A stretch of 64,000 bases of DNA, from contig NZ_VFMS01000001.1 in NCBI RefSeq assembly GCF_006715165.1, positions 2,170,001 to 2,234,000 of the forward strand. Direction: 5' to 3'. Source of the DNA: Arthrobacter sp. SLBN-122. GTDB lineage: Bacteria; Actinomycetota; Actinomycetes; Actinomycetales; Micrococcaceae. Shown here piece after piece: positions 9,097 through 28,787 of this stretch. A program made the position numbers and the translations under genes. How positions within the stretch are numbered: position 1 is the first letter of the stretch; every line of letters starts with the position of its first letter. Below the pieces are notes generated by a model, which was not told the DNA's origin, did not search any database, and was given only the letters and a program-made list of their open reading frames with translations.

Positions 9097-9160
9097 AATC
9101 CCCGCCTCCCGGACCTTTCCCCGGCGAATAACGCGGGGTTTGGTCCAGGAGGCGGGGATT
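9097..9160 (-). terminator. Strong hairpin downstream of ppa
   Basis: Arms of 19 bases (9097-9115 and 9142-9160) pair with a single G-T position, enclosing a second short stem (CCCCG / CGGGG). On the minus strand it lies about 70 bases after the ppa stop and is followed by ATTTCTGTTGT, a modest U-rich tail. It also separates ppa from the esterase gene on the same strand. Confidence 0.65.
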
Positions 9161-24342: not shown

Positions 24343-24714
24343 ATGAAGCCGCAGTGGCCGGGGAAGGCCCGGAGCCGCGGCCGCACCTCCATTGAGCAGT
24401 TACTGGCAATTTTCGACGTCTTCGGCGACTGGTTCCAACAGGACGATTTCGAAGGCAGTCCCTTTATCAATGTCTTGCTGGAGATGGGTCCGTCCCACCC
24501 CTGGGGCCAGGCGAGCATCGACTATCTGGCCAAGGTCCGCGGGCACGTCCGAGGGTTGGCGGAAGAAGCCGGCTTGGTGCGCCCGGAGGAATTTTCGCGC
24601 TCCTGGCACATCCTGATGAAAGGCTCCATTATTTCCGCCACTGAGGGAGACCTGCAGGCGGCCAAGCGCGCCCAGCAAATGGCGCGCTGGCTCATCGAGC
24701 ACCACAGGGCATAG
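24343..24714 (+). pseudogene. TetR-family regulator remnant lacking the DNA-binding domain
   Basis: An open frame of 123 codons whose product matches only the ligand-binding C-terminal half of a TetR regulator. LLAIFDVFGDWFQ, FEGSPFINVLLEMGPSHP and SRSWHILMKGSIISATEGD, then a final helix AKRAQQMARWLIEHH, are typical of the YcdC/TetR C-terminal domain. The expected N-terminal helix-turn-helix (about 50-60 residues) is absent. Upstream lies the divergent small gene. I read this as the 3' end of a regulator cut off by a deletion or rearrangement. It could in principle be translated from ATG 24343, which has no good Shine-Dalgarno. Confidence 0.7.
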
Positions 24715-24756: not shown

Positions 24757-26466
24757 CTACACCCCGGCACCAACCGAGCCCGGGAACAGCGCAAACGGCA
24801 TCCTGTAGAAGTCAGCCCAGAGCGGGTCCTCGGGTGAGAGGTCGTTGAGGTCTATGAGTTTGTCGTCGTCCGGTTCCCACTGCGGGAGGTCTTCCGGGCT
24901 GGGATCTACACCCTGGGTTACGGCGGGCATCGGAAAAAGTCCCGCCGGCCAGTGGGTTGGTTCGGGGTCTGGGTGTTCGGGTTTGTAGTGGCGGCCGGTG
25001 GGTGAGGTCCAGCCGGGTGGTTCGTTGTCGGTTGCGGGGTCCGGGATCCATGGCCGGGTGTGTTTGAGCCGGTGATGTTTCGGGCAGAGCTGGGCCAGGT
25101 TGCTGGTGCCCGTGGTGCCGCCGTGTTCCCAGGCAGTGAGGTGGTCGGTGTCGTTGTCCGGGGTGCGGTTGCTGCAGCCAGGGAAGCTGCATTTCCCGTC
25201 CCGCATGCGAATCCATTGTTTGATGGTTTCGGGTAGCCGGTAGCGGGTGCGGCCGATCTCCAAGGGGGCCCCGTCGCGGGGGTCGACCAGGACCCGGTAG
25301 AACGAGTCCGCCCCGTCCGCGACGAGTTTGCGGGCCAGGGATGCCGGGATGGGGCCGTGGCCGTCCAGTTCTGCGGGTTCGTCGGTGATGCCGAGCAGGG
25401 CGCACACCGGCACCATGACCAGGACATCCGCACGCGGGGTGAGGACCTTCCCGATCTCACCGGTGCTTCCGTTAGCCTGGGCTGCCTCGTTGGTGCTGCT
25501 TGCGCCGAGGAGGAGTGATGCTGCGATGTCGGGGCGGAGTTGGGTGAGGGTGCGGGGTTCGTCGGGGACTTGGAGGCCGCGGGCGGTGGCGGTGGTGCGG
25601 TTCCAGATCGCCGAAGCGGTGTGCCCGGGGAGGTGGAGGGAGATCCAGGCCCTGCCGTCGCGGTCCGGGGTGTATTCCATCCGCCGGTCCGCAACACCTT
25701 TCGCGTGGCGCTTCTGCAGGCTTTCGGGGTGGTGGCGTTCGCGGCAGGAACGGACTTTGACCCGGAACCGGGAGGGAATGAGTTCGCCGGGTGCGGCGCC
25801 GCGGGCCGGCTTCGGGGCATCGGGGTCGAAGAAGTGCGCCACCAGGGCGGCGGCACCGTCCGGGGTGAGCCCCTCGGTCTCGTCGGCAACAATTCTCGCG
25901 TGCTGCCATGACAGGTCCCCGGCAGACAAGGCTGCAAGGACGGGCGGCAGGGAACACACCTGCCGGAACTGTTCCACGAATGCCCCGGCAGCGCCGAAAC
26001 TGATGGTCAGGACCCCGGCGATTTCCTCCACCGCTGGCATCTCCGCGTAGGTGCGTTCACGCACGGGCGCGTCGGGGGCGAGCAGCGCATGCTGGATCTC
26101 AACGACCTCGGCAACATCACGGGCTTTCACTGCAGCGAGCTGCGCCTCCAGCCGCTTCACCGCTTCCAGTCGTTCCAGCCGGAGCTCATACCGCCGCTGC
26201 AAAACGTCCACACCAGCCCCAATACCCAGCCCGGCAGCCAGGAAAGCATCCTCAGCGGCCAGCGCATCAAGGGCAGCAACAGAGGAGTGGACCCCTTCCA
26301 AAACCACCCCGCCACCGCTGCTGATTTCCATACGGACATCATCCAACGAGGCACTGACATTCGAAGCGGCCAGCCAAACCTGCCCCAGCCAAGCGTCTGC
26401 CCAGGCGCCTCCAGCTGCGCAGCCGCGTGCCGTCGTCGTGCTTGAAGCTCCCTGCAAACCTCCCAC
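24757..26466 (-). CDS. DUF222 / HNH endonuclease signature protein (13E12-like)
   Basis: A 569-residue protein with an N-terminal DUF222 domain and a C-terminal HNH motif (CSFPGC ... DTDHLTAWEHGG ... LCPKHHRLKH), the architecture of the multi-copy 13E12 repeat family in actinobacteria. The HNH cysteines and histidines are intact, so nuclease activity is possible, but none has been established for most members. The GTG at 26466 gives the longest form; ATG 26331 (MEISSGGGVV) is an alternative. Families of this type often differ in copy number between strains, in keeping with the accessory nature of this region. Confidence 0.85.
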   Translation of the reverse strand: MGGLQGASSTTTARGCAAGGAWADAWLGQVWLAASNVSASLDDVRMEISSGGGVVLEGVHSSVAALDALAAEDAFLAAGLGIGAGVDVLQRRYELRLERLEAVKRLEAQLAAVKARDVAEVVEIQHALLAPDAPVRERTYAEMPAVEEIAGVLTISFGAAGAFVEQFRQVCSLPPVLAALSAGDLSWQHARIVADETEGLTPDGAAALVAHFFDPDAPKPARGAAPGELIPSRFRVKVRSCRERHHPESLQKRHAKGVADRRMEYTPDRDGRAWISLHLPGHTASAIWNRTTATARGLQVPDEPRTLTQLRPDIAASLLLGASSTNEAAQANGSTGEIGKVLTPRADVLVMVPVCALLGITDEPAELDGHGPIPASLARKLVADGADSFYRVLVDPRDGAPLEIGRTRYRLPETIKQWIRMRDGKCSFPGCSNRTPDNDTDHLTAWEHGGTTGTSNLAQLCPKHHRLKHTRPWIPDPATDNEPPGWTSPTGRHYKPEHPDPEPTHWPAGLFPMPAVTQGVDPSPEDLPQWEPDDDKLIDLNDLSPEDPLWADFYRMPFALFPGSVGAGV

Positions 26467-26617: not shown

Positions 26618-27184
26618 ATGTCAGAGCACAGCATCGCAGGCAAGAAGGTGGCATTCCTGCTGACTGACGGAGTGGAGCAGGTGGAGCTCACCAGCCCCTG
26701 GCAGGCCGTGAAAGATGCCGGCGGTGAACCCACCCTCGTGGCACCCAAGAGCGGCAAGCTGCAGGGCTACAACGGCACGGAAAAGGGCGACACCTTCGAC
26801 GTCGACCTCACGGTGGCTGAAGCAAATGCCTCGGACTTTGACGCCCTGGTCCTTCCCGGCGGCGTCGTCAACGCGGACCACCTGCGCGTGGACAAGGATG
26901 CCCAGAGTTTCACCCGCAGTTTCTTTGAACAGCACAAGCCGGTGGCCTCCATCTGCCATGGCCCGTGGCTGCTGATCGAGGCTGGAGTCATCAGGGGCCG
27001 CAACGTCACCTCCTACTTCACTTTGGAAACAGACCTGAAGAACGCCGGCGCCAACTGGACGGACCAGGAAGTGGTGGTGGACCAGGGCCTGGTCACCAGC
27101 CGCAACCCGGATGACCTCCCGGCCTTCAACGAAAAGTTGGTGGAAGAGATCTCCGAAGGGGAGCACGCGGGCCAGACCGCCTGA
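26618..27184 (+). CDS. DJ-1/PfpI family protein (type 1 glutamine amidotransferase-like)
   Basis: 188 residues of the DJ-1/PfpI superfamily, close in layout to Bacillus general stress protein 18 (YfkM). It has GKKVAFLLTDGVEQVELT at the start, FDALVLPGGVVNADHLR, and the nucleophile-elbow cysteine in ASICHGPWLLIEAG. Members are stress-linked glyoxalase/deglycase- or chaperone-like proteins; the substrate here is unknown. AGGAGGAA precedes ATG 26618. The promoter upstream carries a palindromic operator. The DHA2 pump follows after a 121-base structured leader and may be co-transcribed. Confidence 0.88.
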   Translation: MSEHSIAGKKVAFLLTDGVEQVELTSPWQAVKDAGGEPTLVAPKSGKLQGYNGTEKGDTFDVDLTVAEANASDFDALVLPGGVVNADHLRVDKDAQSFTRSFFEQHKPVASICHGPWLLIEAGVIRGRNVTSYFTLETDLKNAGANWTDQEVVVDQGLVTSRNPDDLPAFNEKLVEEISEGEHAGQTA

Positions 27185-27190
27185 CCCCTA

Positions 27191-27305
27191 GTGTTCCCTC
27201 AGGGTTGAAAAACCCGTATGGAGGAATTACTCCAGCGGGTAGAGTGTTTGCATCTGCAGCGGCGCCGGCCGTGCATCATTCACAAAAACCCTTGAGGGAA
27301 CACCC
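27191..27305 (+). promoter_or_regulatory. Structured leader sequestering the Shine-Dalgarno of the DHA2 pump
   Basis: GTGTTCCCTCAGGGTT (27191-27206) is complementary to AACCCTTGAGGGAACAC (27287-27303), with one bulged base. The second arm contains GAGGGA, the only Shine-Dalgarno for the ATG at 27306. Inside the enclosed region lie a hairpin (ACCCG / CGGGT with TGGAG / CTCCA, 27212-27240) and a GC-rich stem (GCA-CGGC / GCCG-TGC, about 27256-27273). GGGTT (27202-27206) can instead pair with AACCC (27211-27215) around a short A-rich loop, which would free the SD. The layout is that of a translational switch or cis-regulatory RNA. The ligand or trigger is unknown. Confidence 0.6.
27218..27295 (+). 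CDS. Candidate 25-codon leader peptide upstream of the efflux pump
   Basis: An upstream ORF starting at ATG 27218 (MEELLQRVECLHLQRRRP, then seven more residues) with its TGA at 27293-27295, inside the arm that pairs with the leader's 5' end and directly on the pump's SD. The RRRP stretch fits the R/K-x-R/K type of motif at which macrolide-bound ribosomes stall in known resistance leader peptides. No good Shine-Dalgarno precedes it, so translation is uncertain. Confidence 0.3.
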   Translation: MEELLQRVECLHLQRRRPCIIHKNP

Positions 27306-28787
27306 ATGTCTACCGAGACCTCGCCCAACTCCAGCGGCCCGTCCGTCCAAGCGCCCGGACGGGACGCCCGGTCCGCCGCACCGGAGAAGATGTCCCGGGA
27401 GTCCGTGACCATCATCAGCACGCTGCTGGTGGCGACGTTCGTGGTGATCCTCAACGAGACCATCATGAACGTCGCCCTGCAGCGGCTCATGGTGGACCTC
27501 CGTGTGGACGCTCCCACGGTCCAGTGGCTGTCCACGGGGTTCATGCTCACCATGGCCGTCGTCATCCCCACCACGGGCTTCATCCTGCAAAGCCTGTCCA
27601 CGCGCGCCGTCTTCATGCTTGCCATGGGCCTGTTCGCCGGCGGAACAGCCCTTGCCGCGGTGGCGCCGGGGTTCGAAGTCCTGCTGCTGGCGCGCATTGT
27701 CCAGGCGGGCGGCACCGCCATCATGCTGCCGCTGCTGATGACCACCATCCTCACCCTGGTCCCGCTGGCCAAGCGCGGCGCCGTCATGGGCAACGTCAGC
27801 ATCGCCATTTCGGTGGCCCCGGCCATGGGTCCCACGGTCTCCGGCCTGATCCTGGAGCATTTCACTTGGCGCTTTATGTTCGTCTTCGTGCTGCCGGTGG
27901 CCCTCGTGGCGCTGGCCATTGGGGCGAAATACCTCACCAACGTGGGCGAGCCTGAAAAGGCACGGCTGGATGCATTGTCCGTCATCCTCACGGTCCCCGC
28001 ATTTGGTGGCCTGGTCTACGGGCTGAGCCAGATCGGCGGCGGCCATGGTGGCCAGGCCGGTCCCAGTGCCGGGGCCATCGCAGCCCTGGTCATCGGCGTC
28101 GCAGCCCTGACAGTTTTCGTCCTCCGCCAGGTCCGGCTCCAGAAGGCAGCCGCGCCCTTGCTGGACCTGCGCGCCTTCAAGCTCCGGATGTTCACCGTCT
28201 CGGTCCTGCTGATGGTAGTGGCCATGATGGCCCTGTTCGGCGGCGTCATCCTGCTGCCGCTTTACCTCCAGGAAGTCCGTGGCCTGGGCTCGCTCGAAAC
28301 CGGTCTTGCACTGCTTCCCGGCGGCCTGGCCATGGGCCTGCTGGGCCCGGTCATCGGCCGCGCGTTCGACAAGGTGGGTCCGCTGCCGCTCACCATCACC
28401 GGATCCATCCTGATGGTGGTGGCCCTCTGGCAGTTTTCAATGCTCGACGCCGGCACCCCGGTGTGGTGGATCGTGACCTTGCATGTGGGGCTGAGTTTTG
28501 GCCTGGCGCTGCTGTTCACGCCCGCCTTCACCACCGGCCTGAACCCGCTTCCGCCGCACCTCTACTCGCACGGGTCAGCGATCATGAGCACCACCCAGCA
28601 GGTGGCCGGCGCCGCGGGAACGGCACTCCTGGTGTCCATCTTCGCTGTGGTGAGCGCCGCCTCGGGACTCGTCGCCGGGATGAGCGCAGCCTTCCTGACG
28701 GCTACCGTCATAGCCCTTGCCGCCGTCGTACTTTCCGCGATGATGCGCAAGACCGAAGGTGCCGGCGCGGGCCACGGCGCGCACTGA
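27306..28787 (+). CDS. DHA2-family MFS drug:proton antiporter
   Basis: 493 residues with about 14 hydrophobic segments, as in the EmrB/QacA (DHA2) group of proton-driven multidrug exporters in the cytoplasmic membrane. Motif A-like and antiporter motif C regions are visible (TTGFILQSLSTRAVFM; AISVAPAMGPTVSGLILEHFTWRFMF), with MNVALQRLMVDLRV in TM1. The N-terminus is a Ser/Pro-rich cytoplasmic tail. ATG 27306 has GAGGGA six bases upstream, which is buried in the leader's terminal stem. The substrate is unknown. It converges with an alpha/beta hydrolase gene. Confidence 0.9.
   Translation: MSTETSPNSSGPSVQAPGRDARSAAPEKMSRESVTIISTLLVATFVVILNETIMNVALQRLMVDLRVDAPTVQWLSTGFMLTMAVVIPTTGFILQSLSTRAVFMLAMGLFAGGTALAAVAPGFEVLLLARIVQAGGTAIMLPLLMTTILTLVPLAKRGAVMGNVSIAISVAPAMGPTVSGLILEHFTWRFMFVFVLPVALVALAIGAKYLTNVGEPEKARLDALSVILTVPAFGGLVYGLSQIGGGHGGQAGPSAGAIAALVIGVAALTVFVLRQVRLQKAAAPLLDLRAFKLRMFTVSVLLMVVAMMALFGGVILLPLYLQEVRGLGSLETGLALLPGGLAMGLLGPVIGRAFDKVGPLPLTITGSILMVVALWQFSMLDAGTPVWWIVTLHVGLSFGLALLFTPAFTTGLNPLPPHLYSHGSAIMSTTQQVAGAAGTALLVSIFAVVSAASGLVAGMSAAFLTATVIALAAVVLSAMMRKTEGAGAGHGAH

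What the first reader, a model, noticed from the sequence alone, without database searches (positions are those of the whole stretch)
27191..27305. Possible new cis-regulatory RNA or leader-peptide switch controlling a DHA2 multidrug pump
The leader of the pump has 16/17-base complementary ends (27191-27206 and 27287-27303), and the 3' arm contains the only Shine-Dalgarno. Two internal stems are present. A competing hairpin uses part of the 5' arm (GGGTT 27202-27206 with AACCC 27211-27215), so two exclusive states, SD hidden or SD free, are drawn directly by the sequence. Actinobacterial RNA motifs upstream of multidrug transporters have been described (for example MDR-NUDIX); I cannot say whether this one belongs to any of them.
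Basis: partly seen in the sequence, partly recalled or inferred. Interest (0 to 1): 0.75.

Follow-up and report, generated by a model that had tools for sequence, protein, structure and literature searches.

The report
Stress promoter nested inside RBS-hiding hairpin
The supposed drug-pump riboswitch is better read as a promoter for a stress sigma factor lying inside a long RNA hairpin, so that messages running in from the gene upstream probably cannot make the pump while messages started by the stress promoter can.

Summary
The two long complementary arms (27191-27206 / 27287-27303) and the hidden Shine-Dalgarno are real (fold z -5.7). The riboswitch reading is not supported. Between the arms lies GGAAT-N18-GTT (27223-27248), the published SigR/SigH (thiol-oxidative stress) promoter motif. 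It precedes 146 of 148 pump orthologues read in the genus; the other two are near-matches. In 81 aligned leaders the only invariant columns are GGAAT, GTT, one C, one G and the TG of the start codon. The genome has SigH and RsrA; the motif also precedes sigH and one of two thioredoxin reductase genes. mRNA from this promoter would start downstream of the 5' arm and cannot form the long stem. Of 50 loci with a 5' arm, 49 have pfpI directly upstream; 97 loci without adjacent pfpI lack the arm. The stem would hide the SD only in read-through mRNA (mean unpaired 0.02 versus 0.40; window locus 0.11 versus 0.50). Best explanation: insulation from read-through, as in phage T4 gene e and I-TevI. Shown: motif, conservation, predicted pairing. 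Inferred: start site, read-through, repression. New variant of a known kind.

The parts
26618..27184 (+). pfpI (DJ-1/PfpI family) gene directly upstream and co-directional; presumed source of read-through mRNA
   Evidence: Pfam DJ-1_PfpI 6.9e-54; TIGR01382 over cut-off; the simple terminator scan found none between it and the pump
27191..27206 (+). 5' arm of the long stem (P1), between the pfpI stop codon and the promoter; would be absent from mRNA started at the promoter
   Evidence: sequence; fold; an arm in 50 of 61 leader-found loci, L059 a variant
27223..27227 (+). -35 element GGAAT of SigR/SigH-type promoter
   Evidence: invariant in 81 of 81 aligned leaders (in 20 of these the motif was used to place the promoter); only GGAAT-N18-GTT in the 64-kb window, both strands
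27228..27245 (+). 18-base promoter spacer, ending in a TAGAGT hexamer that may also serve sigma-A (inference)
   Evidence: spacing 18 in 81 of 81
27246..27248 (+). -10 element GTT
   Evidence: invariant in 81 of 81 (same caveat)
27254..27256 (+). predicted transcription start (about 6-8 nt after GTT; inferred, not measured)
   Evidence: inference from recalled spacing of SigR/SigH promoters
27255..27275 (+). 5'-UTR hairpin (P3) of the promoter's own mRNA
   Evidence: 96.0% of cells paired, 50 sequences; fold; in more distant relatives a hairpin seems to stay in place with other pairs (read)
27287..27303 (+). 3' arm of P1, holding the Shine-Dalgarno GAGGGA
   Evidence: a similar SD region is present in some relatives without a 5' arm (read)
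27306..28787 (+). DHA2-type MFS efflux pump (EmrB/LmrB-like)
   Evidence: MFS_1 4.6e-42; TIGR00711 322.5 bits over the cut-off of 230.2

Best explanation
The pump is transcribed from its own SigR/SigH-type (thiol-oxidative stress) promoter, GGAAT-N18-GTT, at 27223-27248. The long stem is not a ligand sensor. Its 5' arm lies upstream of that promoter, so mRNA started there lacks the arm, has a freer Shine-Dalgarno and is translated. mRNA that runs in from pfpI carries both arms, folds into the long stem and hides the Shine-Dalgarno. The pump is thereby made only when its stress promoter fires, although no terminator is seen between it and pfpI. Shown here: motif, its conservation, SigH/RsrA in the genome, predicted pairing and its association with pfpI. 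Inferred: the start site, read-through from pfpI, and the repression.
For: Promoter: exact GGAAT-N18-GTT before 146 of 148 pump loci in the genus: 61 of 61 found by leader DNA, 20 of 20 taken from genomes without a leader match, G088, 64 of 66 further ones. The other two read GGAAC-N18-GTT (G110) and GGAAT-N17-GTT (G141), read. Two paralogues in G027 (56% and 53% identical) lack it. Spacing control: N18 in 81 of 81; other spacings 0-1 loci per group except N9 in 5 of 20 of group C; in the last 400 nt of the 66, N18 in 64, next N9 in 8 and N27 in 6. Own genome: SigH 382.9 bits and RsrA 94.4 bits, over cut-off; motif before sigH and one of two thioredoxin reductase genes over cut-off (L163, not L164); GGGAAT-N18-GTT 22 versus 6 for the reversed control. 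Published: SigR motif GGAATN18GTT (PMC2375139, passages); C. glutamicum SigH GGAAt-N18-19-GTT (PMC10012870, passages); cg1288, an MFS multidrug efflux permease, listed with 3.94 among genes changed in an rshA deletion (PMC3489674, passages). Insulation: SD unpaired, mean of 50 arm-bearing loci, 0.40 in own mRNA, 0.017 in read-through (46 of 50 under 0.10), 0.33 with shuffled upstream DNA; window locus 0.50, 0.11, 0.41; armless loci 0.47/0.40/0.38 (11) and 0.42/0.35/0.36 (20), 0.43/0.34/0.34 (64). Arm with pfpI directly upstream 49 of 50 versus 0 of 11; arm pattern within 150 nt of the promoter 0 of 97 in armless groups. pfpI elsewhere: 0 of 20 with the arm pattern in 200 nt. Arms 97.0% paired in 50 sequences, slid versions 37-61%.
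Against: No transcript data: start site, read-through and repression are not shown. Covariation in P1 is thin (3 pairs, 4 cells changed on both sides, 1 of 500 shuffles as high; the covariation score of the -1 slide, 0.044, exceeds the 0.042 observed). On the pump tree the arm needs about 3 changes, much of it one gain and one loss, so 49 of 50 is not 49 independent events; and a segment between pfpI and the promoter would go when that junction is broken anyway. In most other loci the co-directional gene upstream is panC and no hiding arm is predicted, so read-through alone does not demand one. L059 has a variant arm but no pfpI and little predicted effect (0.09 versus 0.17 shuffled, 0.15 own); L061 has a co-directional TetR-like gene upstream and no arm. 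After one of the 20 distant pfpI genes (L109) a look-alike one base shorter, GTTCCCCAGG, follows the stop (read). In 8 of 50 arm-bearing loci the upstream-SD duplex is not better than all but 5 of 200 shuffles. Outside the genus only 7 of 25 loci have GGAA[TC]-N17-19-GTT in the scanned upstream DNA (L138 has almost none to scan).
Confidence: 0.66

Rival explanations
1. A riboswitch or other sensing RNA: the three-way junction closed by P1 binds a drug or metabolite and opens or closes the SD.
For: Strong fold; SD in the 3' arm; conserved loops between the arms; pump gene downstream; hairpin 2 pairs better than its slid versions (75% versus 32-54%) and has more cells changed on both sides than any of 500 shuffles.
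Against: No Rfam match. The most conserved bases form a promoter motif with fixed spacing that persists in 97 pump loci lacking the arm, 95 exactly. Hairpin 2 is unpaired in a quarter of cells and its 5' side varies. The competing hairpin is in 5 of 50. P1 is too stable for easy opening (inference).
Confidence: 0.08
2. The two arms are inverted copies of a DNA operator flanking the promoter, bound by an unknown repressor; the complementarity is DNA symmetry, not RNA pairing.
For: CCCTNAGGG is itself nearly palindromic; arms flank the promoter.
Against: Arm start to ATG varies 111-121 in 49 loci, about one helical turn, though 24 of 49 are 117-118. The 3' arm is the SD region and similar SD regions exist in relatives without a 5' arm (read). 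No regulator gene was seen to travel with the arm, but only the immediate neighbours were read.
Confidence: 0.12
3. The long stem is a processing or stability element of the pfpI mRNA (for example an RNase III site that cuts pfpI away from the pump), not a translation block.
For: Arm coincides with pfpI directly upstream; a 13-16 bp duplex would suit double-strand cleavage (recalled).
Against: Nothing here tests it; the arm pattern is absent after 20 of 20 pfpI genes elsewhere (L109 has a look-alike), so pfpI alone does not need it.
Confidence: 0.12
4. A translated leader peptide controls the pump by ribosome stalling.
For: A 25-codon ORF from 27218 ends with a stop codon that overlaps the SD (read).
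Against: The ATG is present in 7 of 50 relatives (read); frames and stops in this stretch differ between relatives (read); the start would lie upstream of the predicted mRNA 5' end.
Confidence: 0.02

Closest known systems
Phage T4 gene e (lysozyme) and I-TevI/I-TevII/I-TevIII, segB, Aeh1 mobE: RBS hidden only in upstream-initiated transcripts (PMC3014915 and PMC2988022, passages read)
   Same: SD held in a helix in transcripts from upstream promoters; a second, condition-specific promoter lies so that its mRNA lacks the 5' part of the helix and is translated.
   Different: Here the promoter is of ECF sigma (SigR/SigH) type in a bacterial chromosome, the arms are about 80 bases apart with the whole promoter inside, and the upstream gene is pfpI. 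Effect not measured.
SigR (Streptomyces) / SigH (Corynebacterium) regulon promoters (PMC2375139, PMC10012870; passages)
   Same: GGAAT-N18-GTT, same spacing; SigH and RsrA present; motif also before sigH and a thioredoxin reductase gene.
   Different: Nested inside a read-through-blocking hairpin in the pfpI-linked loci.
C. glutamicum cg1288, MFS multidrug efflux permease changed in an rshA deletion (PMC3489674, passages)
   Same: MFS drug pump under SigH influence.
   Different: Orthology with this pump not tested; no hairpin known to me.
MDR-NUDIX and other Rfam cis-regulatory RNAs
   Different: No Rfam match on either strand of the window at gathering score, none on the + strand of 27100-27400 up to E 10; that MDR-NUDIX is among the 4227 families was not checked by name.

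Membership tests
SigR/SigH-dependent promoter | GGAAT-N18(-19)-GTT | tested here: met
   27223-27248; 146 of 148 genus pump loci exact, two near-matches
SigR/SigH-dependent promoter | Cognate sigma and anti-sigma in the genome | tested here: met
   TIGR02947 382.9 bits, TIGR03988 94.4 bits, both over cut-off
SigR/SigH-dependent promoter | Same motif before known regulon genes of this genome | tested here: met
   sigH and one of two thioredoxin reductase genes over cut-off (L163 yes, L164 no)
SigR/SigH-dependent promoter | Transcription starts there and depends on SigH | not testable with these tools
   needs 5'-end mapping and a sigH mutant
T4 gene e / I-TevI-type insulation of the RBS | SD sequestered in transcripts from upstream | tested here: met
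   as a prediction only: SD unpaired 0.017 versus 0.33 shuffled, mean of 50; window locus 0.11 versus 0.41
T4 gene e / I-TevI-type insulation of the RBS | Second promoter whose mRNA lacks the 5' part of the structure | tested here: inconclusive
   promoter motif lies 3' of the 5' arm; the start site is inferred
T4 gene e / I-TevI-type insulation of the RBS | Long transcript made but poorly translated | not testable with these tools
   no RNA or reporter data
Known Rfam cis-regulatory RNA | Match to a covariance model | tested here: not met
   0 at gathering score in 64 kb; two weak - strand matches only, E 1.3 and 5.1
Riboswitch | Conserved mutually exclusive structures | tested here: not met
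   the proposed competing hairpin is in 5 of 50
Riboswitch | Ligand binding | not testable with these tools
   needs in-line probing or SHAPE
Leader-peptide attenuator | Conserved small ORF in the leader | tested here: not met
   ATG in 7 of 50 (read)

The most novel reading that the evidence does not exclude
A chromosomal gene evolved a T4-like read-through insulator: when pfpI came to lie upstream of a SigH-dependent pump, a 5' arm complementary to the pump's existing ribosome-binding site arose between pfpI and the stress promoter, so that translation is licensed only by the sigma factor that starts the mRNA; it was lost again where pfpI was replaced by another neighbour.
Probability: 0.5. 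Interest if true: 0.6.

Novelty: new variant of a known kind. Interest (0 to 1): 0.45.

Why it matters
It would show that bacteria, like phage T4, can tie translation to the choice of promoter: the same coding sequence is readable or silent depending on which sigma factor started the message. It also warns that a strong, conserved leader fold may contain a promoter, so that much of the fold is never in the gene's own mRNA; riboswitch searches in GC-rich actinobacteria could be misled. It would place a DHA2 pump of Arthrobacter and Pseudarthrobacter in the thiol-oxidative stress response.

Tried and rejected
Riboswitch or known RNA family: Rfam scans empty. Leader peptide: ATG and frame not conserved. 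A tRNA D-arm resemblance of CTCC..GGTAGAG, noticed while reading, was dropped once the motif looked like a promoter; the ACTC/GAGT dyad in the spacer was not counted. DNA operator arms: not excluded, judged less likely. Internal hairpin 2: 75.3% of cells paired; pair types no more than in shuffles (431 of 500 as high) but more cells changed on both sides (0 of 500 as high); kept as unproven. The gapless inverted-repeat scan missed P1 because of its bulge. Rows dropped: L062 (chance hit) from all counts; L060 from the tree (pump frame 15 aa); 2 of 66 loci without exact N18; the tree holds 20 of the 87 loci of groups B-less panC type (the 66 and G088 were not added). Two of 150 genus genomes (G091, G131) had no pump at E <= 1e-200 and were not read. 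In group C the motif itself placed the promoter (20 loci), so invariance there is partly by construction; the spacing control addresses this. Literature: 9 searches were answered; none of the listed papers was seen to describe this leader or a SigH regulon of Arthrobacter, but lists were capped (10 of 29, 8 of 60) and subscription journals are mostly outside that library. Of papers I saw only listings, abstracts' beginnings and the passages named in the report.

Full report
What was claimed and whether it is there. The finding describes complementary ends at 27191-27206 and 27287-27303, the second holding the pump's only Shine-Dalgarno. Both are there, complementary over 16 bases with one bulge, and the stretch folds far better than shuffles (z -5.69, 0 of 200). 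The pump is a DHA2-type MFS protein (TIGR00711 over cut-off); directly upstream and co-directional lies pfpI, with no terminator-like site found between them by a simple scan. No Rfam family matches.

Relatives. The leader DNA was found in 62 of 150 genomes of the genus; 61 are real and sit before the pump start, one (L062) is a chance match. The named records nearest to the pump, among 80 listed, are Arthrobacter and Pseudarthrobacter. Fifty of the 61 have a 5' arm (group A; L059 a variant), 11 do not (group B). The pump is in 147 of 150 genomes at E <= 1e-200.

The middle is a promoter motif. The best conserved stretch reads GGAAT-N18-GTT, at 27223-27248 the only such site in the window. This is the published SigR motif GGAATN18GTT (PMC2375139, passages) and the SigH motif of C. 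glutamicum (PMC10012870, passages). Of the 88 genomes without a leader match, the 20 listed were taken and 20 of 20 pump orthologues have the motif, while two paralogues in G027 do not; 64 of 66 further ones do, as does G088. With the 61, that is 146 of 148; the remaining two read GGAAC-N18-GTT and GGAAT-N17-GTT. In 81 aligned leaders the invariant columns are GGAAT, GTT, one C, one G and the TG of the start. Spacing 18 occurs in 81 of 81; other spacings from 8 to 30 in 0-1 loci per group, except spacing 9 in 5 of 20 group C loci. The genome has SigH and RsrA above their cut-offs; the motif precedes sigH and one of two thioredoxin reductase genes over the cut-off (L163 yes, L164 no); GGGAAT-N18-GTT occurs 22 times against 6 for the reversed control, some inside long open frames, others before proteins that I read as FMN reductase-like or SDR-like. 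In C. glutamicum an MFS efflux permease is listed among genes changed in the rshA deletion (PMC3489674, passages). In other genera of the family the motif was found in the scanned upstream DNA of 7 of 25 loci, so the link is secure only within the genus.

What the arms do. An mRNA started at this promoter begins near 27254 (inferred), downstream of the 5' arm. The computed unpaired probability of the SD region is 0.40 on average in such an mRNA, 0.017 in read-through mRNA (46 of 50 under 0.10), and 0.33 when the upstream DNA is shuffled (50 group A loci; for the window locus 0.50, 0.11 and 0.41). The upstream DNA pairs with the SD region as well as or better than all but 5 of 200 shuffles in 42 of 50 loci. 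Group B (11 loci) and panC-linked loci (20 and 64) show no such effect on average: 0.40 versus 0.38, 0.35 versus 0.36, 0.34 versus 0.34. Single exceptions under 0.10 are L125, L127, L202 and L176; in none of these four is the upstream-SD duplex itself outstanding against shuffles (12 of 200, 9 of 200, 31 of 100, 97 of 100 as good).

The arm and pfpI. pfpI lies directly upstream in 49 of 50 group A loci and in none of 11 group B loci, where the neighbour is a divergent LysR gene (L053 confirmed by Pfam; L050, L054, L055, L058 by my reading), a divergent beta-lactamase-like gene (L056 confirmed; L046, L051, L057, L060 by reading) or in L061 a co-directional TetR-like gene (its relative in L046 confirmed). 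At least 3 of the 11 group B genomes still have pfpI elsewhere. The arm pattern is absent within 150 nt upstream of the promoter in 97 of 97 loci of group B, group C and the further 66; the same pattern misses 2 of the 50 group A arms (L013, L052), so it is not perfect. Twenty pfpI genes elsewhere carry no arm in the 200 nt after them; L109 has a look-alike one base shorter. The 5' arm is conserved at 0.92 or more over 11 positions, its neighbours at 0.29-0.96. Pairs: 97.0% of cells, 37-61% when slid; three pairs have changes on both sides (1 of 500 shuffles as high) but the covariation score (0.042) is exceeded by a -1 slide (0.044).

History. The pump tree holds 80 loci (50 A, 10 B, 20 C). 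Group B is one clade (99/90) drawn inside group A next to L038 and L049 (fork 92/76), and A (without L059) plus B stand apart from the 20 C loci (fork 97/87). The simplest history is panC-pump first, then pfpI plus arm, then loss of that junction and the arm in one clade; L059 lies with the C loci and is unexplained. A CTCCCTGAGGGAA-like SD side already exists in many panC-linked loci (read), so the 5' arm looks like the newer partner.

Mechanism and rivals. The anatomy matches phage T4 gene e and I-TevI, where upstream-initiated transcripts hide the RBS and a later promoter makes mRNA without the 5' part of the helix; for gene e the block is given as 100-fold (PMC3014915; PMC2988022; passages). 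I prefer translational insulation of a SigH-driven pump from pfpI read-through. Against a sensing RNA: the most conserved bases are promoter bases, hairpin 2 is unpaired in a quarter of cells, the competing hairpin is in 5 of 50. A pair of DNA operators or an RNase site cannot be excluded. No transcript was measured.

Verdict. Observation confirmed; riboswitch reading not supported; SD hiding supported as a prediction for read-through mRNA; the promoter motif is the main new fact.

Noticed in passing
L112-L131 and L167-L232, upstream of the pump: In panC-linked loci TGAC lies exactly 17 bases before the hexamer that abuts GTT (9 of 20 and 36 of 64; 0 at spacings 15, 16, 18, 19), and that hexamer is TAnnnT in 15 of 20 and 49 of 64: a sigma-A-like promoter may overlap the SigH-type one. 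In the arm-bearing loci only the TAGAGT/TAGAAT half is kept (50 of 50).
   Followed up: partly
L125, L127, L202: Three panC-linked loci have a different upstream stretch (AAGGTTTG) complementary to the stretch before their own SD; predicted SD unpaired 0.00-0.02 in read-through, though the duplex energy is not outstanding against shuffles. Possibly an independent insulator.
   Followed up: partly
window 24361-24711: Only the C-terminal part (residues 98-214) of a TetR-family protein of L046 (Pfam TetR_N) is matched here, between panC and pfpI; it looks like a remnant.
   Followed up: partly
window 9097-9160: Inverted repeat with arms of about 19 bases, perhaps a terminator.
   Followed up: no
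window 24757-26466, - strand: DUF222/HNH endonuclease gene between panC and pfpI, in the stretch where the panC-pump order of relatives is broken.
   Followed up: no
L037: The pfpI gene matches in pieces around a long proline/glycine-coding simple repeat; an insertion or an assembly fault.
   Followed up: no
L060: The pump reading frame from the conserved start is only 15 aa long; its genome G029 gave no pump match at E <= 1e-200.
   Followed up: no
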